Made by a program: the position numbers and the translations under genes
Part shown: positions 2,748 through 31,958 of the stretch, piece by piece
Position numbering within the stretch: position 1 is the first letter of the stretch
How the letters are laid out: the number at the start of each line of letters is the position of its first letter
Notes under the pieces: generated by a model
Told to the model about the DNA's origin: nothing
The model's input: the letters and a program-made list of their open reading frames with translations, nothing else
Databases searched by the model: none
From: Draconibacterium orientale
GTDB lineage: Bacteria; Bacteroidota; Bacteroidia; Bacteroidales; DYQJ01
NCBI GenBank assembly: GCA_020719345.1
Contig: DYQJ01000005.1
Coordinates: forward strand, 1-37,741
DNA: 37,741 nucleotides
Direction: 5' to 3'

Positions 2748-3629
2748 TTATTTTAACAATTTATCTAATAGTTCTTTTCCGGAAGAGAAGAACAACATGG
2801 CAAATATGAGCGCATTTAAGATGGTCAAAATAATAACAAAGAAATTGGTTCGCGAGTTTTTAGATTGTATGCTTTTTACTTTTTGCAATATCAATAAATT
2901 GGTCTCGTTTTTTAATACCGAGTCTAATATGGTATTGTTATCTATTTGATTTTTACGTATTTCGGATAGCAAATGAATCATTTTATTCAATGTTTCATTG
3001 GTCTCGGCTTGTTTTGTTGTTATTTGATTAAGCTGCGCTTCAAAATCTATACTATTAAGTTCTTTTTTCAATGTGGCAGTTGCCTGTGCGAGTTCTAAAT
3101 AGCTGTTCAGTAGTTCATCTATTTTGTGCAACTTTTCTTCGTTGCTTAAAAGGGAGGCATTTATTCGTTCTGTTATCTTGTCGGCAAATATTTTTAAGCT
3201 TTGCTGATGAATGTCTACCTGTTTTTTATTTTCGTCTCCTATCTGATTAAGAATAGAACGATGATTATCTATTGCTCCTTTCAAATATTCATGCGTTAAA
3301 TCTTCGGTTCGCAAAGAGAGCTCCGTATATTTTTCCAGTACTCTCTCTTCATCTCGCACTTTTTCTTGAAACAGCTCGTACAATTTTCTTACGTTTTCTT
3401 CCGAGTGACGATATGTCTTGTTTAAATATTCTGAATACAAGGCGATTATTTTATTTAGCTGCTCGGCATATTTTTCTTGTATAGCTCTAATATTCGTAAC
3501 TGTGCCTTCAGTAAGGTCACCTACTCTTGTGATGTGTTTTACTGCACTATCTAAAAGACTTAGCTCGTCTTGTAGCTTTCGTAATTCTTTATTTATATTT
3601 TCTTCCATTAGTAATGTGTTATATTTCAT
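2748..3629 (-). CDS. Coiled-coil protein with C-terminal transmembrane anchor
   Basis: 293 aa; long heptad-rich E/K/L segments, then TNFFVIILTILNALIFAMLFFSS near the C-terminus. Start codon overlaps the upstream stop (ATGA). Confidence 0.75.
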   Translation of the reverse strand: MKYNTLLMEENINKELRKLQDELSLLDSAVKHITRVGDLTEGTVTNIRAIQEKYAEQLNKIIALYSEYLNKTYRHSEENVRKLYELFQEKVRDEERVLEKYTELSLRTEDLTHEYLKGAIDNHRSILNQIGDENKKQVDIHQQSLKIFADKITERINASLLSNEEKLHKIDELLNSYLELAQATATLKKELNSIDFEAQLNQITTKQAETNETLNKMIHLLSEIRKNQIDNNTILDSVLKNETNLLILQKVKSIQSKNSRTNFFVIILTILNALIFAMLFFSSGKELLDKLLK

Positions 3630-6600
3630 TGTTTTATTTTAAATCCTTTTAAAAAATTGGCATTGAATTGTCTCAGCCATTCTACATGATATTTTAGCTC
3701 AATAAAATCTTCAAATTTTGACTTGATAGAGCTATTTTTTTCGTAAATTTTCTCCAATAAATAATTTTTGTCGCGGTCAACAATCTCCGAGTTCGCATGC
3801 GTAGTCATTTGCATCATAGAATATCCGGCATTTATTTTGGATAGTCCGTCACTGACAATCTGCTCGTTGTCCGAGTTATACAAAATATCGGCAAATCCAT
3901 TAAGTATCTGGCAAATAGCATTGTTAGGATTTTCTTTGAGTAAAATATCTGTTGTTTTATATAGATGCGACAAGTTGTCTTTAAAATACGAGAGCTCTTT
4001 TATGTAATAATCTATAACTTCGTTATTTACAACAGAAATATTGCGCAAGCCAAATAAATATTTGGCATCAAAATAATCATTATGTAAGCTGCAAATATAA
4101 TCTTTATTTTTTGAATATCCATTCTCAGACAAATTAGGATTCTTTATTTGTGTTGCTACCAGATTTTGCATGGACACCAACGAATCACGTCTTTTGGCAA
4201 CAATATTTTGGTACCAGAATGTATTGAAAAAGATAAAAGATTTTTCTAACATGCTATCTGCTTCTATATCAGATAATTCTGACATCATCGTCTTCAATTT
4301 TTCTTCGGTTATATATAGTTTCAAATAATTTTGAAGCGAGTTATAATAAAAAATATCTTCCCGTTTTGTGAAATATATTGTTATCTCGGATTTGTGATAA
4401 TTGATTGTATAATCGTCAATTATATTTATCAACCACATCTTATGAACTACCGACCATGTCTGATAAAAATTTCGGCAGCGATTATACAAATCTACTACTT
4501 GGTTATAATTATCTCGCGTGAACTTGCTAAGATTTAATTCATTGCGTTTGAGTAACAACTCTTGAAATTCATTGAAATTATTTGACAACTTATAAAAGTT
4601 GTTTAGTTGCGAGTCCTCAAAATTTTCCCATATACTTGCTTTAATCTTTTTTGCGATTCTCTCCACATAATCATTTGTGAAACCGACAGTTAGAGTATTT
4701 TCTGCATTTAGCGTCATCTCTTGTAACAAAGTTTTCATTCCTTTGCTATTCTCTTTTTTTGTTGTAGTTTCAAGCCATGTAACTAGGTCAGTTTCCGATT
4801 GCCGTTTGGTTTCTATGTCGTTTTTGGCAAAATACAAAATGCGTTCGTTCATCTCTTTGTCGTAAACGGAAGATTTGATAACAATCTCATTGCTTTTAAA
4901 ATCTATGAATCCAATTAATTTTTCGGTTTTAAGAATATGCAATTGATGTGGATTCGTTCCCGGCTCGGTTCGTAATTCAAAGATGTCATCAAACTCATAA
5001 TCAAGATGTTCCTTCAAATTATTGATAGGTGTTTCGGTAGAATAAGATATTTCATTTATCAACTCCTCAAAGATAAACACATTTTTTTCGGCAGTTAGAT
5101 GTATTTTATCAAAGATAATATTTAATAAATTTATATCAGCTTCTTGATTATTGAAAAAAGTAGTTATCAAGGCATTATCTATTTGTCGTCCTGCACGCGC
5201 ATTGGTTTGTATAAAATGCTCTACCGACAGTGGTAAATGCAGATGTACTAAGTTATTGATTCCTTGCATATTTAATGCCACACGAATAGATTGTGAGGCA
5301 ATTAATATATTTTTTTCTTTATTTTTAAAACTTCTATAATCGCGGTACGAGTTATAACTTTTTATCTCACTAACGGCAAAAAAGCCATCATCTATCGTGC
5401 CTTCAAATTTGGCGAGAGATAAATTTTTCGCATTTTCCAATTTATCATAAATTCCATCACCTGTCTTTGTAGAGACACTTGTAAGTCCCTGTTGTTCAGT
5501 GCAAACGACTAATAAATTGTTGTCATTAGTAATTTTTTCCTCAATAAAATTAAACAATCTTTGTTGCTTATATATCTTAACGGCATTTTCAAGCATTGTA
5601 GAATCAGAGAGTTCTTCCGGATTTTCTATTTTTATATCAACAAATTGAAAATCCAGATTATTAAAATTATTTTTGTCATGCAATATTTTCAAATTGTTGT
5701 CTAATTTATTAGTAATGTCATAAATAACATTATAACTGCAATACGAAGAGAAAATATACAACGGCAGATGTGTCAAATTAGTTGGTTTACAATAAGTTTG
5801 CAAATTTCTTATTAAAGACGAATGCGCCATAGAAAAATCGTGTCCCCATTCGGAGATGCTATGCGCTTCGTTAATTATTGCCGAAGAAAATGTTAAATTA
5901 TTTTGTTTCATCTCGTTTAAAACATTTCTAAACTCTTGGGTTAAAAACATTTCTGCCGATATTAAGATAACTAATATTTCTTTATTTTTCAAGTTATTTA
6001 AGACTTTCTGTTTCTCTAACATCTTTGTTTGTAAGCGATTGACATAATAAATGCTATCTATTCCCTGATTTTTCATCTCGTCTATATATTCTTTGAGCGC
6101 CGACATGTTGGCAGGTATTACCATTGTGATGGCATTTTGAAAGAAATTAACAAATAAAGCAATGAAATTTCTATTCTGTGAGAATGCCGAGCTGACAAGA
6201 CAATTATTTAATCCCAACGCCGACAAAACAAATTCTAACTCGTTGTTAGACAACTCATATTTACGAAAAATAGTCCGTAAAAAGAAAGTTATACTATCGG
6301 TAACCGATGAGATTCTTTGTTCTGATATTTGATTATCCGGAGTAGAATATAAATCTTGATATTTTGTTAATTGATTATTAATAAGGAATTTGCGTCTGGA
6401 TTTTTGTCCGCGAGCGCTGCGAATTTGTGCATAATATTTAGCCGAGTTATTAAGATATTTGAAATCTATGCCGTTTCGTCTTAGAACAGAAACATCAACA
6501 ATCAAATCAAAATAACGACTTGATTCAAAATCTGATATAAGATATTTCTCACCTTGATAAAGCACATTTAGCTCTGCTTGTTCAAACTCTTCGCTGTGAT

Positions 6601-7696
6601 AAATAGTTAAATTTATTTTGGGTAATTTGCGTTGCGCATTTTCTATAATAGCGAAATTTTTGAAATAAAGTTTAAAATCTTCTATGGCAAGAAATCCGCA
6701 AGGAATGTCTTGCTCTATGACCGCAATATTCCACTGCTCTTGGTCTATGTTTAATTTATTAGCTAAAATAAATTCTATTAAAGTCTTATGAATGCGTGCT
6801 ATAGCAAGCGGCGCCAATGCTATTTGCAGTGCTTGACGTCCGTCTTCGGTCTTGTACAAAGGTGTTTTAAAAAATTTTTGAATATTCTCAAAATAATCAT
6901 CAGACAAAAAATATGATAACAATTCCAAATCTTTTTCTATGTTTTGGAAGCTGTCTTTTTTTAATCCTATATATGCATCCCAATTGACACTTTTTAGGAG
7001 TTTGTTTTTTAATTCTTCCGCTTTATAATCACTAAAATTATTGTCGGCGTCGTCTTCTAAGTTAATAATAATTCCTTTATAGTCTCGCTCCGTAAATGGT
7101 GATTCTATGGAGAAGCTGGTCTTTTCATATAAAAAATTATAACTTGCGTTTTTTGTTAATCTGTCTATATCTTCAAAATTATTCTCGTGATTTTCAATTA
7201 TATTTTTATAAGTTCTTCCGAAATCTATCATCTGAATCAAATAGTCACCGTAATATAGTGGCAGAATATCTAAGACAAAATATTTTTGCAATAAGACTTT
7301 TTCATCTTTTGTGTCATAAGTATATTTAGTAAAATATTTCTTATCAAAACGTGGCTCAACAATATGAAGTGCTTGATATATAATACGTTTGAAGTCATCG
7401 GTAGTAAAATTATATACAATGTCGTTCTGTGCGGTTATTTCTTTGGTAGTTTTAGAAAACGTATTCGCTATCATATCTTCAATAAAACACGAGGGACGAG
7501 TAGGCAGACCGCGGGTAAGCAGATTATTGAATCGGCACAAAATAGAGTCCATATTTGTGTGCTTCAAGTCGGCATTGGTCTCTAATTCAAAAAATGACAG
7601 CTGCCGCAATAAGTCCGTTACTTTATGTTTATTTTTATCTTGTAAAAACAAATTTTTTATCCCGTCAATAAAATAAGACGCTTGTAATTGTGCCAT
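3626..7696 (-). CDS. RecQ-like SF2 helicase-related protein, probably ATPase-defective
   Basis: 1356 aa. '[14 protein letters not shown]' matches the RecQ motif II/aromatic loop (IDEAHCxSQWGHDF). '[12 protein letters not shown]' matches motif VI. The Walker A position reads '[13 protein letters not shown]', with no GKS/T. Confidence 0.75.
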
Positions 7697-17865: not shown

Positions 17866-18852
17866 TTAAGAAGTGCAATTATTGCATATTTTTATTTTTC
17901 TGCGATGCGTTAATATCGTGCTTTTAAATTTGTTAGCTGCTTCTGAGTTAATAATATCTTTCAAATTATTAGTTCTGAGATTTCCAAAAATGTGGTCAGC
18001 ATTTTTATCAAAACAGCATGGAAGTACATCTCCTTCCCACGTAATTGCTGTTGCGTTCCATAGTCTTTGGCATCTGTTGTTTAATTGTTTTCGCATGAGA
18101 TATTTGCCGTTTTTTAATATATATCTTGAGTATTTTTTTTGTAAAGGGATTAAATTTGCGTTGTTTATAAAATCATATACTTGAATAGTTTTAAGTTCTA
18201 ATTTATTTACTTTTAAAGATTTACACAGTTTTTGCATGTCGCTGATTTGCGATTCGTTATACGAAGTGACAAGGAATTGTATTACAATATATGGTTTTAT
18301 TGTTTTTAATCTTTTTTTTGTGTCGGACAGATTTTTAACGCCATCTATAACTTTCTGCAACCTCCCTCCTACTCTATATGTTTGATATACATTTTGAGTT
18401 GTTCCATCTATGGAAATAATAATTTTATCTAAACCACTTTTAATCAAATTATAACAATTTTCAGGAGAAAGAAAATGTCCATTAGTAGAAGTTGTGACAA
18501 AAATATTTTTGGAGTTGGCATATTTTATCATCTCAAAAATATCTTTGTTTAAAAAAGGTTCGCCTTGAAAATAAATGAACATATTTAACAAATATTTGTA
18601 AGTTTGGTTGGCAATATTTATAAAATCAGTCGTGTTCATATATCCTGTTTGTCGGGTCAATAATTTTAGTCCGCTGGGACATTCTTTACATTTCAAGTTG
18701 CAAAAATTAGTTGGCTCTACCGAAATAGAATATGGCATTCCCCAAGTTATAGGTTTGTTAGCAATAACAGATATAATATAGCTGATAGTTATTTTGAAGA
18801 AGTTTAATATTTTAAGTAGCGTTATTTTTTTTAGAAATATAATAATCAACAT
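17866..18852 (-). CDS. Radical SAM/SPASM domain protein
   Basis: 328 aa; 'EPTNFCNLKCKECPSG' radical SAM CxxxCxxC, C-terminal 'GDVLPCCFDKNADHIFGNL...KICNNC' SPASM cysteines. Confidence 0.9.
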   Translation of the reverse strand: MLIIIFLKKITLLKILNFFKITISYIISVIANKPITWGMPYSISVEPTNFCNLKCKECPSGLKLLTRQTGYMNTTDFINIANQTYKYLLNMFIYFQGEPFLNKDIFEMIKYANSKNIFVTTSTNGHFLSPENCYNLIKSGLDKIIISIDGTTQNVYQTYRVGGRLQKVIDGVKNLSDTKKRLKTIKPYIVIQFLVTSYNESQISDMQKLCKSLKVNKLELKTIQVYDFINNANLIPLQKKYSRYILKNGKYLMRKQLNNRCQRLWNATAITWEGDVLPCCFDKNADHIFGNLRTNNLKDIINSEAANKFKSTILTHRRKIKICNNCTS

Positions 18853-19021: not shown

Positions 19022-22000
19022 CTAATTGTTGTTTAAGAACTTAATTACGGCAAATTTAGCTGCGGCTATGGTTTCGCGATTAGCTTTCTCCATTATTTTG
19101 CTGCGATTGAGGTCTTCTACGCTGAGGTGTCCATGCATAATTAGGAGTTGTAAAATCATGTTATTAACAATTGTATCTTGCGAATACCCTCTTGCGATAT
19201 AAAGTTTATGACATTCGGCGAAAAATTCTTCGGAGAAATCATTGTTATTTGGTAAGCTCATTATTTGCAAATAAGTTTCGGAGAAGCTGTTTATTTCTGT
19301 ATTAATATTAGGAGTTACGAGTAGTGGCGAAAATTCGTAGTTCTTTTTAAGTGGCTTAAACCCTTTTAGTTTTGACATGTTAATAACAGTTTTCATGTCA
19401 TCGATTCTAACAAACTCGGCTTTTCGCATTTGTTCTATCTGCCAGAGGACGAAGTTGTATCTAAGTATTTCGGGACTGAGATAAGTATCCACGAATATAT
19501 GTTTGTAATGTTCTATTACGGTGTTTCTAACTTTTTGTTTATTTGCGTTAATTTCGGGATTTTCTATGCGTACTTCTTGTATTAGTTTTTGCAGTTCTTC
19601 GGCGGCTTTTTGTGGTCCGGAGATTTCTCTGCCTTTTCTACCTATGTCAGTAGATAATAGTCCGAGTTGAATTTTCGTTCCTTTACCTTTTCCATATTTT
19701 CCTTTCAAAATGTTGAGTAAGTGCAATTTAGTTTCAATTTGTCCTTCTTCCGAGATGAAAGGTTGTCCTGTAGGCGTGCTTGCGAGAGCATTAAACATGT
19801 TTGCAAACATATTTTTAGTTATCCAGACGCTAATAGTATTGTTATTCGTGTCGGTAGCGGTGGCGTTAAACCGATTTTTTATTATGTCAAATTGGATATT
19901 TAGTATCTTATAAGTGACATTATTTTGTATAAAAGTTTTGTCCACAAAAATTTGTTTGACAATATCTTCTATGTCAATTTTATCAATCAATTTATATGAT
20001 GAAGCCAAATAGAAATCAGTTGTACGGTCGTCTTTTTGCCAGTCGAGTATCTCGTCAAGATAATTTCCATGTTTATCAAGAACGGAGACGATATTAGGAT
20101 ATGCTGTATATCTTAACAAAGTTCGTTGAAAATGTGGGTGGTCTGAGCTGGTGGCTTTTTCTTTTCGTTCGCCATGCGATTCGCGGTAGTAAATAAAATT
20201 TTCGGGGTTGTCGTATCTGATAACACCGGCTTCTTGTCTTGCGAAATTGCTTGCTGTCAGCATAATATCAATTTTATAAGGCATTGAGATGTCGCAAAGT
20301 CCACTGATAGTGCTTCGTGAGTTGAGGTCTTCTACGTTGCTGTCCGAAGCGTTTTCAAAGAGGGAATTGTAATATTTTATATATTCCGGGTCAAAGTCGG
20401 TTACTCGTGAGAAGTCACCTACTTCGGTACCGATGCCATATAAATTTCCTTCTTGGTCAGGGAATATGTGGAACATGTCACCGGCGATTAATTTGATAGA
20501 GCGTATTCTGTTCATGTCTTTTTTCAACCACTTCAACATTAATGCGGCAAGCATTTCGGATTTTCCTACTCCACTGTCTCCGCTTACTTCTACCACGAAT
20601 ATTGCGCCGTCTTCTTCTTCTACGGCAAACATAGAGCCGTGTACGGGTATTCCTCCCATCTCTTTAACTTTTTCATTTATCATCGTGAGTCTCGGTTTCT
20701 TAACATCACCAAAATAGTCCACCTTCTTTTTTAGCGGAGTGATGAGTGTTTTTATTTTGCCGTTAGGTCCATTTAAGTCAAAATAACCTATTTGCGGGAA
20801 TGAGATGACTTTTTCAGGAGCGCCGAGTATCATAATCACATCCGGCACAAACGTTTTTATTTGTTCCAACGTGACATCGTTATAGCTTAGCAGTCTGTAA
20901 TTATCAGCCAGATATTTAATATAAGATTTGTGAAAGACAACTAATTCTTTAATAAGTCCTTGCGCTATTATTTTGCAACGGTAGTCTTGCTTGTCTATAT
21001 TTTTGACAAATTTTTCTAATCGTTTGGCAAAAAAGTCGGCATTCGGCTTAGGTGCGAGATTTTTAATGTAGTCATTGATAGAAGGATTGAGTTTAGAATT
21101 TTCTATTCCTTTCTTTCGCAATTCTTCTTCGTGTTCGGTTCGGTCAATTTTGTGAAATGGATATTCGCGTTTTTTGGCGTCAGTAACTATTCGGGTGTGC
21201 ATTTGTACGGGTTGCTCGGCGGAGATGACTCCACAATTTTTTAACATCTCGTTGATCCATTTTAAAGAGCCGTTATTGTAGTAATATAATATATTCTCTT
21301 GATTATCAAATCCGGAGTATATAGTTATGCCATGTTGTATCATCTCGTTAATAGCCGAGTTTTGACGTTTGAACTCTATTTCAGTGAATTTCATTAAGAA
21401 GTGAGTATATTTATCATAATATTCGGTGGACTTGGTTCTATTTATTATATCAATGATAAATATCGCCATTCTGCGGCATTCGTTATGGAGATTCGTTATA
21501 GAAATTTTGGTATTTTCTGTCTCGCCAATTTGCAATAAAATAGATTCTAATTCGGTATTCAACAAATCATATAAAATATTTTCTGCGAACATTACATCTT
21601 GCGAATCAGAGTATTTAACTATTTGATTTTCATATACGGCTATTTTTTTCAACAAAAGATTTTCAAAATTTTTATCTCGTTTCAAAAGATATAAGAAGAG
21701 TATTTTCTTGGCAAATTCGGTTTCTTTGTTATCAATAAATAGCAGTAAATATTTGCTAATCAGTCCAATGTATTTATCGTTTTGCTTGAGATGGACAAAT
21801 TTTTCGGTATATCTAATTTCATGCATCAGAGCTTCGGTGTAGGATTTTATACCAAAGTCGGTTATCGGGTTTCGTGTGATTTCTTGATATTTTGTCAAAG
21901 TAGTAAAAAACAGTTCTTTAATAGAAGGTTCGTGTCCGTTGTTTGCGAAAGGTAAATTAAAATTGATAAGTAGCTCTTTGATAAACTTTTTCAAGATTTG

Positions 22001-25000
22001 ATTAGCACCTTCTAATCGTTGTCGGTCAAAGTTTACATCATTAGATGCGTTGAGTGCCATGATTTTGAACTTAGCATTAGAAAAGAGTATATTTTCCATC
22101 TCTATCAAAATTTCTTTCATTATACTAATTTCGTCGGCGTCGTCAAGTACGTAGTTATTCGGTTGATTATCAAACTTATTTTCTATGTACTTTAAAATAG
22201 TCGGTTTGCCGTATTTAGAGCGCACTATTCTATAGTCCAATTTTTTGATGGCAGGAATATTTTTATATATCTGTGGCAAAAGATTTTCGTATATTTTAGT
22301 AAATGCCTTGCTTCGGATAAAATCTTTTATATCAGTGCAGTTGCCTATAATTTCGGAAAATTCAAATACCGAGTTTTTAGATTCGGGTATTCCATTGATA
22401 CACACGCCACTATCGGTAGGAAAAGCCAGATATAAAGTTATCTCATTAGATATTTTTAAGCTGTCTATCTTAGTTTTTTTAATATCTTTAATAAGATAAA
22501 AATCTATTATCACATTATTAATAAACTCTTTATCTGATGCCGAAGCAAAAATTTCTTTTAAGAGGTCTTCCGAACGTTTGTTTTTATTTTTTATGTCGTT
22601 TCTCGCTTCTATATAAATAGTCCAGTATTTAAAAAATATTTGTAAAGCGTTTTTAAATTCTTTTCCGAAGTCGTCATAGCTTTTGTCGTTTCCTTGCAAA
22701 TATCCGCCCATAGAAAATCTGACGAATCCTGTTTTATACGGAATGACAGCGATGCCGCGTTGCTCGGTCAGTTTTTTGGTAAATTTTTCAAGACCTTGAT
22801 AAGACGTGATGTCTTTCAATATCAAGTTGAATAAGTAAGAACCATCCGAGTTGACTATTTTAGCATATCTGTCATAGTTATTTTGAGTAATAACCTCATT
22901 AGCAATGTCCTTAGCTATTTGCATACGGAGTGCGGATTCTTTTAAAAAGACTTTATTGACTCTAAAATTATTTAGATTCCTCAATAATTGCGAGTGATAA
23001 TATTTGAAAAATGCTTGTCCTTTATAAATAAAATCATCAGGCAGATTAAGGACTTCTAATTTATCTATGGCTTTGAGTTCGTCAAGTAGAAATATATGTA
23101 ACGGACTTCCCTCAAAATCAGATATTTGCGCATCGGATTTGATATTATCGGCTATACACTTTTTGATACTTCGCCACGAGGCATTTTGAGAGAGATATTC
23201 TTCTAATTGGTCTTTGTATTTTTTAGCTCTTTGTGCGGTCTCCAAAATTTTTATTAACATATAAATAGAATTGGTGTTACAATATTCACCGCTATTTTGT
23301 TGCTTTGCATAGCTAATAACATCTTGTCGCATTGGAGTAGCCACAAGACAGCCAAGACGATTGCCTGTTCCACTTAGATTTTTTGTCGTAGAAATAGAAG
23401 AGACGATGCTAATATTAGGAAAACTTTGAATATTGTTCAAAACATATCTTGAGATGGAGCGCCATTTAGGTTCCAAAATATTAGGATTTTTAACCGAATC
23501 GTTGTAAGCTTCGTCAAGAAATAAAGTTATTTTTGTCATGCCGATGAACTTGAGAAAGGTCACAAAATTTTCGTTATTGAAGTCGGTGTATCCGGTGGGA
23601 TTTGAAGGGTCGTTGATGACAATAGTAAGGTTTTCACAAAATCTGTCCCATAAATTTCCGGTGTCGTCGAACAAAGTAAAGGTGCTTTTCATGCGCATCA
23701 GACGTAATGTTAGCCGTTGCCAATAGATTCGTCCTTCTTCGTTCATGCCTATTTCCAAATCAAAGGAGTTAATATCAAATCTATCAAACGGAAATAAGTC
23801 TTGATATTCCCATGATAAATCCATGTTATACAATATGTAAGGTCTTAGACTTTCTTCTTTATGAAAAAGGATATCTCTAATAATCATCTGGACGTCATCC
23901 GAGATGGAAGTTTTATCTATATTGCCTAAGTCGGAAAGAAAACTTTTTAAGATATTTTTTTCTTCTTCGGTTTTGCTGTCATATTGATTTTTTATCCCTA
24001 AGTCAAGCAAGAAGTTAGTAAAACGTCCTTTGTTGTCGGCTTCGTTTTCGCGCTTCGTCAAATGTTCTTTGTAACGTTCTAAAAATAAATTTATTCCGAA
24101 GTTCTTATGAAAATGGTTTTTCAAAGTTCGGCTGTAATTATTAGGGATAATATCTAATATAGTTCGGCATTTTTTGAGGATAGCCGAGTCAATGGGTTTT
24201 AGTTTTCGTTGCAACAGATATTCGCCATAGGTTCGGATTTGATTGCGTCCTCCGCCTTCTGTTATGGTTGCTATTTGCAAATATTTATTGTTGGAATAAG
24301 AATATTGACGGGTTCGCATCTCGTATTCTGCGATAAGCTCGGTGTTTTGAATTTTAAATATTTCAGGATTATTAATGTTGATAATCAATTTAATATAATT
24401 ATTAAGTTTTGTAACCGCATATTTATCTTTGATTATTTGTTGTGCGAAATCATCAAATTTGTAGAGCATCGTATTTTTTTCTACATTATGCAATTCGCCT
24501 ATTTGTTCAGTTTTGATGGCATCTAATTCTTCCTGATAATCTTTTATTTTATTCTCTAACAGCGAGACAAATTTTTTAAGCAATTCTACATTTATTTTAT
24601 CTAAAATAAGTCTTAGATTGAGTTGAGTATTTGCAAGTGAGCCGAGTTTTTTATTATGGACTTTGTTTAAAGTGTTAATTATTCCGTTGTGAAAACAAAA
24701 GACTAATGAGGTATTAGTAGCTTGTGATTCAAAAGAGTCATCTACAAAAATAATTCTTGACAGATAGGGAAACCATTTTTTCTCTGTCAATATATTTCGT
24801 CTCATGTTTTTTATTTTTACGACAAAAATATTAGTAAAATCGTCTTTTATAGTTTCAAACAAGATTTCCTGATTCTGATATTCAATAATTTTCACATTAC
24901 TGTTTCTAAAAACTTCTTCGGAGATTAATTTTATTGTTGTTCCGGAATTAGCACTGACTACTGTTCGGATAAATCCGTTTAGTCCTTTATAATTAACTGT

Positions 25001-25624
25001 TAATTCTGTTTTTTCCAAAAAGTCGCGTTTTTCGGCGACGGTGGTATAATGTGTAGATTGTATTATCATCTGGTCTAAGACTTCGAGCAAATAGTTCCAC
25101 TGCGATTTTTCTTGGTCATCGGTGATTCCTATAACTTCGGTAAATTTTTTAAATTCGTCGGCTTTATTACCTAATAATAAGTCATATAAATAATCAATCA
25201 AATTTTGTGTAACCGGAGGAGTGCCGATGGAAAAATCTTGTGATGCCAAAATATTATTAGCTTGATTCTTAGTATTTTCATCTACAGACTCGTTGTCAAT
25301 CAGTGCGGTTAGTCTATCTACAAATTCTAATTTTTGTGTTCTATATTGGAATGCTTTAGAGTCTTCATGCGGGCTGAGCATTAGCGAGACATCTACATAA
25401 CCGGGAATGGCTTCTTTGAGCTCTATAATTTGCTTGTTTATTTCGCTACCTATCTTAGCGATGTCATCTGCCGGCTCGTAACAGAGACGGACAAAAGTAG
25501 CCAATTTTTCAAAGATATAACTGGGGAGAAAGTTCTCGGCGCGCTCACCGAGAGAAGAATACAAATTGACAAAGTCCTTAGCATCATGTTTTAATTCTAA
25601 TTTTAATTTTCCGGGTAACTGCAT
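19022..25624 (-). CDS. Giant multidomain protein: PLP-dependent aminotransferase fold type I core plus PEPCK/HPr-kinase-like P-loop kinase region
   Basis: Uninterrupted 2200-aa ORF. 'NDPSNPTGYTDF', 'TLFLDEAYNDSV', 'SSISTTKNLSGTGNRLGCLVA', 'GFVRFSMGG' (aminotransferase). 'GGIPVHGSMFAVEEEDGAIFVVEVSGDSGVGKSEMLAALM...IKLIAGDMFHI' (P-loop kinase of PEPCK/HprK type). Confidence 0.8.
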   Translation of the reverse strand: MQLPGKLKLELKHDAKDFVNLYSSLGERAENFLPSYIFEKLATFVRLCYEPADDIAKIGSEINKQIIELKEAIPGYVDVSLMLSPHEDSKAFQYRTQKLEFVDRLTALIDNESVDENTKNQANNILASQDFSIGTPPVTQNLIDYLYDLLLGNKADEFKKFTEVIGITDDQEKSQWNYLLEVLDQMIIQSTHYTTVAEKRDFLEKTELTVNYKGLNGFIRTVVSANSGTTIKLISEEVFRNSNVKIIEYQNQEILFETIKDDFTNIFVVKIKNMRRNILTEKKWFPYLSRIIFVDDSFESQATNTSLVFCFHNGIINTLNKVHNKKLGSLANTQLNLRLILDKINVELLKKFVSLLENKIKDYQEELDAIKTEQIGELHNVEKNTMLYKFDDFAQQIIKDKYAVTKLNNYIKLIININNPEIFKIQNTELIAEYEMRTRQYSYSNNKYLQIATITEGGGRNQIRTYGEYLLQRKLKPIDSAILKKCRTILDIIPNNYSRTLKNHFHKNFGINLFLERYKEHLTKRENEADNKGRFTNFLLDLGIKNQYDSKTEEEKNILKSFLSDLGNIDKTSISDDVQMIIRDILFHKEESLRPYILYNMDLSWEYQDLFPFDRFDINSFDLEIGMNEEGRIYWQRLTLRLMRMKSTFTLFDDTGNLWDRFCENLTIVINDPSNPTGYTDFNNENFVTFLKFIGMTKITLFLDEAYNDSVKNPNILEPKWRSISRYVLNNIQSFPNISIVSSISTTKNLSGTGNRLGCLVATPMRQDVISYAKQQNSGEYCNTNSIYMLIKILETAQRAKKYKDQLEEYLSQNASWRSIKKCIADNIKSDAQISDFEGSPLHIFLLDELKAIDKLEVLNLPDDFIYKGQAFFKYYHSQLLRNLNNFRVNKVFLKESALRMQIAKDIANEVITQNNYDRYAKIVNSDGSYLFNLILKDITSYQGLEKFTKKLTEQRGIAVIPYKTGFVRFSMGGYLQGNDKSYDDFGKEFKNALQIFFKYWTIYIEARNDIKNKNKRSEDLLKEIFASASDKEFINNVIIDFYLIKDIKKTKIDSLKISNEITLYLAFPTDSGVCINGIPESKNSVFEFSEIIGNCTDIKDFIRSKAFTKIYENLLPQIYKNIPAIKKLDYRIVRSKYGKPTILKYIENKFDNQPNNYVLDDADEISIMKEILIEMENILFSNAKFKIMALNASNDVNFDRQRLEGANQILKKFIKELLINFNLPFANNGHEPSIKELFFTTLTKYQEITRNPITDFGIKSYTEALMHEIRYTEKFVHLKQNDKYIGLISKYLLLFIDNKETEFAKKILFLYLLKRDKNFENLLLKKIAVYENQIVKYSDSQDVMFAENILYDLLNTELESILLQIGETENTKISITNLHNECRRMAIFIIDIINRTKSTEYYDKYTHFLMKFTEIEFKRQNSAINEMIQHGITIYSGFDNQENILYYYNNGSLKWINEMLKNCGVISAEQPVQMHTRIVTDAKKREYPFHKIDRTEHEEELRKKGIENSKLNPSINDYIKNLAPKPNADFFAKRLEKFVKNIDKQDYRCKIIAQGLIKELVVFHKSYIKYLADNYRLLSYNDVTLEQIKTFVPDVIMILGAPEKVISFPQIGYFDLNGPNGKIKTLITPLKKKVDYFGDVKKPRLTMINEKVKEMGGIPVHGSMFAVEEEDGAIFVVEVSGDSGVGKSEMLAALMLKWLKKDMNRIRSIKLIAGDMFHIFPDQEGNLYGIGTEVGDFSRVTDFDPEYIKYYNSLFENASDSNVEDLNSRSTISGLCDISMPYKIDIMLTASNFARQEAGVIRYDNPENFIYYRESHGERKEKATSSDHPHFQRTLLRYTAYPNIVSVLDKHGNYLDEILDWQKDDRTTDFYLASSYKLIDKIDIEDIVKQIFVDKTFIQNNVTYKILNIQFDIIKNRFNATATDTNNNTISVWITKNMFANMFNALASTPTGQPFISEEGQIETKLHLLNILKGKYGKGKGTKIQLGLLSTDIGRKGREISGPQKAAEELQKLIQEVRIENPEINANKQKVRNTVIEHYKHIFVDTYLSPEILRYNFVLWQIEQMRKAEFVRIDDMKTVINMSKLKGFKPLKKNYEFSPLLVTPNINTEINSFSETYLQIMSLPNNNDFSEEFFAECHKLYIARGYSQDTIVNNMILQLLIMHGHLSVEDLNRSKIMEKANRETIAAAKFAVIKFLNNN

Positions 25625-26081
25625 AAAAAAAGTTTTTTTTCGTTAATAAAAAATTCGTCCAAAAGTAATAATTTATATCTTTAAAAACAAATAATGAATA
25701 ATGAATAATGAATAATTAACGAGGTTGCAAAACATTGCTTTATCCTTAATAATTCATAAAATATGCTAACTTATTTTTAACCACAAAGATATGAAAGGAA
25801 TCAAAGAAAAAGAAAATTTTTATAATATTTTTATTTTTATCTATTTATGCAATTTTATGAATAAATTAGGTTATAGGGTCGTAAAAAATGTTTTTGGATT
25901 AGTAAAAAAATATTTTGAAAAAAAGTATAAAATGTTTGGTGCTTAAATTTTTTTATTTAAGTTTGCAGAGTAATAGAGAAGAACAACAAAATGTGTTATT
26001 CTGAGGTTATAATAAATTTGCCGCAAAAGCAGATTTTTTCAGTGGAAGAAAAACACGAATTTTCGGAGTAACAATTTAAAA

Positions 26082-26293: not shown

Positions 26294-27136
26294 ATGCAAG
26301 GAACAACAAATATAATATTAGGAGATTGCAAAGAAGAACTAAAAAAATTACCTGAAAATTCAGTTGATTTAATTGTAACTTCACCACCTTACGCAGACCA
26401 GCGAAAAAATACTTATGGTGGAATTCATCCTGATAAATACGTAAATTGGTTTTTACCAATCTCAGAACAATTATTGAGAGTGTTAAAACCGACAGGAACA
26501 TTTATTTTAAACATTAAAGAAAAAGTTGTTGAAGGTGAACGTAGCACTTATGTAATAGAGATGATTTTAGAAATGCGAAAACAAGGTTGGCTATGGACAG
26601 AAGAATTTATTTGGCATAAAAAAAATTGTTATCCGGGAAAGTGGCCTAACCGATTTAGAGATGCTTGGGAACGATTGTTACAATTTAATAAAGATAAACA
26701 ATTTACAATGTATCAAGATAATGTAAAAGTTCCCGTTGGCGATTGGGCAAAAGATAGATTGAAAAATTTGAGTGATACAGATAAAACAAGAGATAACGCA
26801 AAAAATGGAAGTGGTTTTGGTAAAAACATTTCAAATTGGGTTGGTCGTGAATTGGTTTATCCTACAAATGTAGTTCATTTAGCAACAGAATGTAGTAATA
26901 AAAATCACAGTGCGGCTTTCCCTGATGATTTACCAGAATGGTTTATGAAACTGTTTACAAAAGAAGGCGATACAGTTTTAGACCATTTTTTAGGTTCAGG
27001 AACAACTGCAATAACTGCAAAACGATTAAACAGAAATTCTATTGGAATTGAAATTTTACCTGAATATTACGAAATTGCTTTAAAATCAATTCAAAACATA
27101 GTTGTATATCCATCATTATTCGCAGAAGTTGTATGA
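26294..27136 (+). CDS. Site-specific DNA methyltransferase (TSPPY, N4-cytosine/N6-adenine type)
   Basis: 'NSVDLIVTSPPYADQRKNTYGG' motif IV and 'GDTVLDHFLGSGTTAITAKRLNRNSIGIEI' motif I. Confidence 0.93.
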   Translation: MQGTTNIILGDCKEELKKLPENSVDLIVTSPPYADQRKNTYGGIHPDKYVNWFLPISEQLLRVLKPTGTFILNIKEKVVEGERSTYVIEMILEMRKQGWLWTEEFIWHKKNCYPGKWPNRFRDAWERLLQFNKDKQFTMYQDNVKVPVGDWAKDRLKNLSDTDKTRDNAKNGSGFGKNISNWVGRELVYPTNVVHLATECSNKNHSAAFPDDLPEWFMKLFTKEGDTVLDHFLGSGTTAITAKRLNRNSIGIEILPEYYEIALKSIQNIVVYPSLFAEVV

Positions 27137-31388: not shown

Positions 31389-31958
31389 ATGAAAATTAAC
31401 CAAATCAAGAACAAATATAATACGCTCAACGACATTTTCAAACTCGTGATTAATGCCGCAATTTTATTGCTTATATGGATAATATTTTATTCTTTCTTAA
31501 AAAATATCGCTTGGATTAAAGAAATTTATGAATTAATGACAATATATTTTACTAATTTCCTAACCAATGCAACAAAATTATCTTTAAATTTAATAGGGTA
31601 TGAAGCCGAAGTCGTGGGAAAAATTGTCCGAATTGTTGGAACATATGGGGTTTACCTGGACAAAGGTTGTCTCGCAAGAAACCTGATGGGAATATTTGCA
31701 GGATTTGTCATCGCATACCCAGGCAAAATAAAACATAAATTATGGTTCGTTCCAATGGGTATATTTATTATTATTATATTAAATATCTTCAGACTATCGG
31801 GACTCGCAATACTCGTAGAATGTTGTCCCGAAAAAGTAGAGTTCAATCACCACTATGTATTTAAAATAATAGTATTTGCTTTCACTTTCTTATTATGGTA
31901 TATATGGGTATTTAAAATTGTTGTTACAAAAAATAAACCAACAACTTTTGATAAATAA
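31389..31958 (+). CDS. Exosortase/archaeosortase family protein
   Basis: 189 aa multi-TM with catalytic-type motifs 'DKGCLARNLMGIFAGF' (Cys), 'LNIFRLSGLAI' (Arg), 'FNHHYVFKI' (His). Confidence 0.85.
   Translation: MKINQIKNKYNTLNDIFKLVINAAILLLIWIIFYSFLKNIAWIKEIYELMTIYFTNFLTNATKLSLNLIGYEAEVVGKIVRIVGTYGVYLDKGCLARNLMGIFAGFVIAYPGKIKHKLWFVPMGIFIIIILNIFRLSGLAILVECCPEKVEFNHHYVFKIIVFAFTFLLWYIWVFKIVVTKNKPTTFDK

What the first reader, a model, noticed from the sequence alone, without database searches (positions are those of the whole stretch)
19022..25624. 2200-aa single polypeptide fusing a PLP aminotransferase core to a PEPCK/HPr-kinase-like P-loop region
Seen directly: one uninterrupted ORF carries fold-type-I aminotransferase signatures in order: DPSNPTG at about 23592-23612, DEAYNDS at about 23500-23517, TTKNLSGTGNRLG at about 23350-23400 and GFVRFSMGG further on. 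About 900 residues later comes VHGSMFAVEE...VSGDSGVGKSE. Established: the first set is typical of class I/II aminotransferases, with K as Schiff-base lysine and R binding the carboxylate. I know of no characterised enzyme with both modules. Inference: a large enzyme that transaminates or PLP-activates one substrate and phosphorylates it or a partner; about 1200 residues are unassigned. It could make a modified amino-acid signal, or act as a large conflict/defence factor.
Basis: partly seen in the sequence, partly recalled or inferred. Interest (0 to 1): 0.82.

Follow-up and report, generated by a model that had tools for sequence, protein, structure and literature searches.

The report
Giant conserved aminotransferase–PEPCK-like fusion enzyme
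A single 2200-residue bacterial protein really does join a complete, apparently active vitamin-B6 enzyme to a PEP-carboxykinase-like ATP-using domain; it is an undescribed, strictly conserved enzyme family of Bacteroidota and Ignavibacteria whose reaction is still unknown.

Summary
One uninterrupted 2200-aa ORF (19022-25624, minus) carries a fold-type-I aminotransferase (AT) domain (residues ~495-1010; Pfam 1.8e-11; Foldseek prob 1.00) and, ~900 residues on, a PEPCK-superfamily domain (~1430-2040; Foldseek's 50 best hits are all PEPCK). It is not an artefactual fusion: 43 near-full-length homologues align end to end (~50-64% identity), and every match in a 393-genome Bacteroidales sample is the whole protein or is cut by a contig end. 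It occurs in 5.9% of those genomes, single copy, including cultured Odoribacter and Alistipes elsewhere. All AT and PEPCK/HprK-type catalytic residues examined are invariant, except one of PEPCK's two Asp, which is Gly. dN/dS is ~0.02-0.07 in nearly all comparisons. No conserved neighbours, family-coherent inheritance, no defence-family match: the profile of a housekeeping enzyme, not a conflict factor. The first 440 residues are found only in this protein. Best mechanism (moderate confidence): a bifunctional enzyme that interconverts an amino acid and its 2-oxo acid on PLP and moves ATP phosphate to/from the enol or hydroxyl form on the PEPCK-like domain; Asp-oxaloacetate-PEP is the simplest case. 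Substrates are not shown.

The parts
19022..25624 (-). whole gene, 2200 aa, monocistronic-looking
24305..25624 (-). N-terminal region, residues 1-440: helical plus small alpha/beta part; no known family; found only in this protein
   Evidence: structure model; no Pfam match above noise in 24 members; profile search of 98 genomes hits only the 5 fusion carriers
22595..24142 (-). PLP fold-type-I aminotransferase domain, residues ~495-1010; N675, D704, Y707, S745, K748 (Schiff-base Lys), R756, R969 invariant in 43 homologues; W605 (tentative AspAT W140 equivalent, by motif only) also invariant
   Evidence: Pfam; profile vs PDB; Foldseek; column counts
21350..22582 (-). middle region, residues ~1015-1425: small alpha/beta part, then long helices; least conserved segment
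   Evidence: model; conservation
19505..21337 (-). PEPCK-superfamily (PEPCK/HprK-like) domain, residues ~1430-2040; Y1637, K1642, K1643, H1662, P-loop GDSGVGKSE 1682-1690, D1716, E1734, R1770 invariant
   Evidence: Foldseek; hhalign to PEPCK P 2.9e-5 with controls >=0.0045; standalone relatives
20555..20587 (-). Walker-A motif VSGDSGVGKSE
19025..19492 (-). C-terminal helical region, residues 2045-2200
   Evidence: model
25660..25667 (-). candidate Bacteroidetes -7 promoter element TACTTTTG (consensus TAnnTTTG, from general knowledge), 35 nt before the ATG
   Evidence: read from sequence; not tested

Best explanation
A cytosolic, stand-alone bifunctional enzyme. Shown: one chain holds a fold-type-I PLP domain with a complete catalytic set and a PEPCK-superfamily ATP-binding domain with the P-loop and the residues that align with PEPCK's metal-binding Lys/His/Asp; both are kept together under strong purifying selection. 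Inferred: the PLP domain interconverts an amino acid and its 2-oxo acid (or activates the amino acid), and the PEPCK-like domain transfers phosphate between ATP and the enol or hydroxyl form of the same small acid, so the fusion passes an unstable intermediate between sites. The simplest chemistry is Asp + 2-oxoglutarate <-> oxaloacetate + Glu, then oxaloacetate + ATP <-> PEP + CO2 + ADP. The unassigned ~1000 residues would be scaffold, oligomerisation or regulation. My probabilities: real co-conserved PLP + PEPCK-like enzyme ~0.95; both domains act on one small-molecule pathway ~0.4; specifically Asp/oxaloacetate/PEP ~0.2.
For: AT domain: Pfam 1.8e-11, PDB profile hits to ACC synthase 4.9e-5 and class I/II aminotransferases, Foldseek 3.2e-6; catalytic residues 43/43. 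PEPCK domain: Foldseek 1.5e-5, 50 of 50 listed hits PEPCK; transitive profile chain fusion-to-standalone P 6.7e-22, standalone-to-PEPCK 1.9e-7, fusion-to-PEPCK 2.9e-5 against shuffled/reversed controls no better than 0.0045; motif Y-F-G-D-V-K-K aligns with PEPCK Y-G-G-E-M-K-K, VHGS with MHCS, GDSGVGKS with GLSGTGKT, NSR with NTR. dN/dS ~0.02-0.07 in nearly every segment and pair. Full-length co-conservation and single copy. Family-coherent inheritance.
Against: No substrate evidence at all: no conserved neighbours to name a pathway. All 8 carriers tested also have one or two canonical PEPCKs, and the window genome has ordinary aminotransferases, so Asp/PEP chemistry would be redundant. One of PEPCK's two Asp (E. 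coli D268) is an invariant Gly (G1715), and the P-loop GKSE is HprK-like, so decarboxylating PEPCK activity may be lost. The second-half model is only moderate (pTM 0.57).
Confidence: 0.4

Rival explanations
1. Kinase plus PLP lyase/decarboxylase: the PEPCK/HprK-like domain phosphorylates the hydroxyl of a hydroxy-amino acid (Ser, Thr, homoserine) and the PLP domain then eliminates phosphate or decarboxylates the product, as in threonine kinase followed by CobD.
For: Weak similarities of the AT core to GntC (3.3e-7), CobD (1.2e-3) and ACC synthase, all non-transaminating fold-type-I enzymes; HprK-like GDSGVGKSE and HG segment, HprK being a serine kinase (general knowledge). A kinase/PLP-decarboxylase CobD in Methanosarcina mazei is recalled from memory, not verified here.
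Against: Those matches rest on the generic PLP core and are far below family cut-offs; ordinary aminotransferases score similarly. The fold matches PEPCK first, not HprK.
Confidence: 0.2
2. Regulatory or protein-modifying role: the PEPCK/HprK-like domain phosphorylates a protein or senses ATP/PEP, and the PLP domain is a substrate sensor that gates it.
For: Redundant canonical PEPCK in all carriers tested; HprK-like motif; large helical middle and ends; stand-alone chromosomal gene without operon.
Against: All PLP catalytic residues including the Schiff-base Lys are invariant, more than a sensor would need; no partner is conserved nearby.
Confidence: 0.2
3. Large conflict or anti-phage defence factor.
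For: Patchy presence (23 of 393 Bacteroidales); big multidomain stand-alone gene; a DNA methylase gene lies upstream in the window.
Against: dN/dS ~0.02-0.07 in nearly all comparisons and every segment; Rikenellaceae and Odoribacteraceae each one clade, with shared flanking genes inside Rikenellaceae subgroups; no PADLOC family (best E 0.068); no recurring neighbours; no match in 50,697 phage records.
Confidence: 0.04
4. Artefactual fusion of separate genes.
For: None found.
Against: Same single ORF in dozens of independent assemblies, including a complete Alistipes chromosome and cultured Odoribacter.
Confidence: 0.01

Closest known systems
PEP carboxykinase (PEPCK_ATP PF01293 / PEPCK_GTP)
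   Same: fold; Y-x-G-x-x-K-K, catalytic His, P-loop Lys, one Asp, downstream E-x-G and Arg
   Different: below Pfam detection in the fusion; one of the two Asp is Gly; P-loop GDSGVGKSE instead of GLSGTGKTT; extra insertions; fused to an AT domain
Standalone ~570-590-aa 'phosphoenolpyruvate carboxykinase'-like proteins of Bacteroidales (L061-L063) and Limosilactobacillus (AYP99509.1)
   Same: closest relatives of the C-terminal module (26-33% identity; profile P 6.7e-22)
   Different: no AT, no N-terminal region; keep both Asp (DDM); function also unknown
HPr kinase/phosphorylase (HprK)
   Same: HG...GDSGxGKSE segment
   Different: lacks the PEPCK-type N-domain and Y-G-KK motif (general knowledge); not among the 50 best structural hits
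Class I/II aminotransferases, incl. GntC, ACC synthase, CobD, Sar2028 (2x5f)
   Same: fold and full catalytic set
   Different: only 10-16% identity; embedded in a 2200-aa chain with long conserved extra segments (EGGGRNQ, KNHFHKNFG, FEGSPL, LPDDF)

Membership tests
Fold-type-I PLP enzyme (aminotransferase class I/II, PF00155) | score above Pfam gathering cut-off | tested here: met
   44.3 vs 19.7 bits, over the core only, res 667-811
Fold-type-I PLP enzyme (aminotransferase class I/II, PF00155) | N (NPxG), D (DEAY), Schiff-base K, RLG Arg, C-terminal carboxylate Arg | tested here: met
   43/43 at each position
Fold-type-I PLP enzyme (aminotransferase class I/II, PF00155) | three-dimensional fold | tested here: met
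   Foldseek prob 1.00, E 3.2e-6
Fold-type-I PLP enzyme (aminotransferase class I/II, PF00155) | transaminase activity / PLP binding | not testable with these tools
   needs protein
PEPCK (PF01293) | score above Pfam gathering cut-off | tested here: not met
   no PEPCK match at E<=1 for the fusion; a standalone relative reaches 23.9 of 26.5 bits
PEPCK (PF01293) | PEPCK fold | tested here: met
   Foldseek prob 1.00, E 1.5e-5, but low TM-score of a pTM 0.57 model
PEPCK (PF01293) | metal/nucleotide residues K213, H232, K254, D269, R333 (E. coli numbering) | tested here: met
   K1643, H1662, K1688, D1716, R1770 aligned by profile and by eye, invariant
PEPCK (PF01293) | second Asp (D268) of the GDD motif | tested here: not met
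   invariant Gly1715
PEPCK (PF01293) | oxaloacetate-binding Arg of the N-domain (R65) | tested here: inconclusive
   invariant R1478/K1484-R1486 lie at a comparable distance, but the alignment there is weak
HprK | HprK domain match in Pfam/NCBIfam | tested here: not met
   no match for the fusion; E 0.03-0.05 for one standalone relative
Known anti-phage defence family (PADLOC) | profile match | tested here: not met
   best E 0.068

The most novel reading that the evidence does not exclude
The founding member of an unrecognised bifunctional enzyme family in which a PLP site and a PEPCK-type phosphotransfer site on one chain carry out a reaction sequence not previously known (for example direct conversion between an amino acid and a phosphorylated enol or hydroxy acid), held by part of the gut and sediment Bacteroidota.
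Probability: 0.35. Interest if true: 0.78.

Novelty: new variant of a known kind. Interest (0 to 1): 0.62.

Why it matters
A 2200-residue, single-copy enzyme under dN/dS ~0.03 must do something its carriers need, yet no paper or curated model I could reach describes it. It occurs in culturable gut commensals (Odoribacter laneus, Odoribacter sp. Z80, Alistipes sp. dk3624), so a knockout or purified protein is feasible. Solving it would also illuminate the standalone PEPCK-like proteins annotated by default as 'phosphoenolpyruvate carboxykinase', which lack an assigned role.

Tried and rejected
(1) Artefactual fusion: rejected. (2) Conserved operon partner: none; neighbours shared only within subclades. 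(3) Conserved 5' leader or riboswitch: no conserved upstream block, no Rfam match but a tRNA. (4) N-terminal region as a degenerate second PLP domain: suggested by a long structural match to an 867-aa viral protein and to sphingosine-phosphate lyases, but profile comparison with the genome's own PLP enzymes and with the AT domain gave nothing significant and the D295-to-N313 spacing looks too short; left unassigned. (5) Fusion as the genome's only PEPCK: rejected, 8 of 8 carriers have a canonical one. (6) Phage origin: no match in phage records. Viral-contig scans returned no answer. (7) Literature on such a fusion or on PEPCK-like proteins: nothing relevant.

Full report
OBSERVATION. The window holds one uninterrupted ORF at 19022-25624 on the minus strand, 2200 aa. 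Pfam finds Aminotran_1_2 over residues 667-811 (E 1.8e-11, above cut-off); the P-loop region has no curated match above cut-off.

FOLD. I aligned 43 near-full-length homologues and folded the protein in two overlapping halves. Residues 1-1190: mean pLDDT 79.5, pTM 0.77. Residues 1011-2200: 74.3 and 0.57, so the second half is less certain. The first half matches fold-type-I aminotransferases in the PDB (best 2x5f, E 3.2e-6, then GntC, kynurenine aminotransferase, ACC synthase; prob 1.00). In the second half all 50 listed hits are PEP carboxykinases (best E 1.5e-5, prob 1.00).

PEPCK-LIKE MODULE. A profile of residues 1400-2045 aligned to ten canonical PEPCKs taken from the carrier genomes gives P 2.9e-5; reversed and column-shuffled controls give 0.0045 at best. 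Intermediates close the gap: 570-590-aa standalone proteins in Bacteroidales (L061-L063) and on a Limosilactobacillus fermentum plasmid (annotated PEPCK). Fusion to standalone P 6.7e-22, standalone to PEPCK 1.9e-7. Aligned motifs: Y1637-F-G-D-V-K1642-K1643 to Y-G-G-E-M-K-K; H1662-G-S to MHCS; GDSGVGKSE to GLSGTGKTT; GD1716 to the second Asp of GDD; R1770 to the Arg of ENTR. All are invariant in 43 sequences. The first Asp of PEPCK's GDD is an invariant Gly (1715), so it should not be called a PEPCK. The HG and GDSGxGKSE segment reads as in HprK (general knowledge of that family).

AMINOTRANSFERASE MODULE. N675, D704, Y707, S745, K748, R756 and R969, and the tentative AspAT-Trp140 equivalent W605, are invariant in 43 sequences. 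I infer a catalytically competent PLP site; transamination as such is not shown. The best sequence matches (ACC synthase, GntC, CobD) include non-transaminating enzymes, so the reaction type is open.

UNASSIGNED PARTS. Residues 1-440 match no Pfam family above noise, and a profile search of 98 genomes of the order finds them only in fusion carriers. Residues ~1015-1425 (helical, the most variable) and 2045-2200 are also unassigned.

DISTRIBUTION AND EVOLUTION. Homologues: 48 loci in public genomes, among them Odoribacter laneus, Odoribacter sp. Z80 and a complete Alistipes chromosome; 23 of 393 sampled genomes of the window's order; 6 of 134 of an order in another class of the phylum, whose sequences group with an Ignavibacteria MAG; 2 of 297 across the phylum. 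That the window's order is Bacteroidales is inferred from the named relatives. Always one gene; shorter matches reach contig ends. Rikenellaceae and Odoribacteraceae each form one clade (FastTree, Odoribacteraceae weakly supported). Within Rikenellaceae subgroups flanking genes are shared, between deeper clades they are not. Nei-Gojobori dN/dS for close pairs is mostly 0.02-0.07 in all five segments (range 0.003-0.11 among unsaturated comparisons; several pairs are saturated).

NEIGHBOURHOOD. In the window the gene sits among housekeeping genes: FtsH, a radical-SAM/SPASM protein downstream, a DNA methylase divergent upstream. No gene recurs beside it across clades, and there is no conserved leader. 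A TACTTTTG box 35 nt before the ATG fits the Bacteroidetes -7 consensus (inference).

MECHANISM. Constraint, full-length co-conservation and intact residues argue for an enzyme that uses both sites. The most economical idea is a two-step small-acid pathway, with Asp-oxaloacetate-PEP as the simplest chemistry. Against that specific version: every carrier tested has canonical PEPCK, and the Asp-to-Gly change. Kinase-then-lyase and regulatory roles are live rivals. Defence is unlikely on the evolutionary evidence.

NOVELTY. Both modules belong to known superfamilies; their combination with a private N-terminal region is not described in any curated model or paper reached here (the library omits most subscription journals). 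I rate it a new variant of a known kind, with a real chance of an unknown reaction.

Noticed in passing
window 17866-18852 (-): Radical SAM/SPASM protein 170 bp downstream of the big gene; best NCBIfam model is a tungsten-cofactor oxidoreductase maturase, far below its cut-off.
   Followed up: no
window 26294-27136 (+): N6/N4 DNA methylase divergent from the big gene; not conserved beside homologues.
   Followed up: partly
window 31389-31958 (+): Exosortase-like protein (XrtX model 120 bits, cut-off 170).
   Followed up: no
L061-L063, L098-L101, L066: Standalone ~570-590-aa PEPCK/HprK-like proteins in Bacteroidales and on a Limosilactobacillus fermentum plasmid (there annotated 'phosphoenolpyruvate carboxykinase' though below the Pfam cut-off); no common neighbours seen.
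   Followed up: partly
L041: The antisense frame over this Rikenellaceae locus is open for 2644 codons, longer than the real gene frame; a trap for ORF callers.
   Followed up: no
window 3626-7696 (-): 1356-aa ORF not examined.
   Followed up: no
window about 25690-25715 (-): Short tandem repeat CATTATT in the big gene's upstream region.
   Followed up: no
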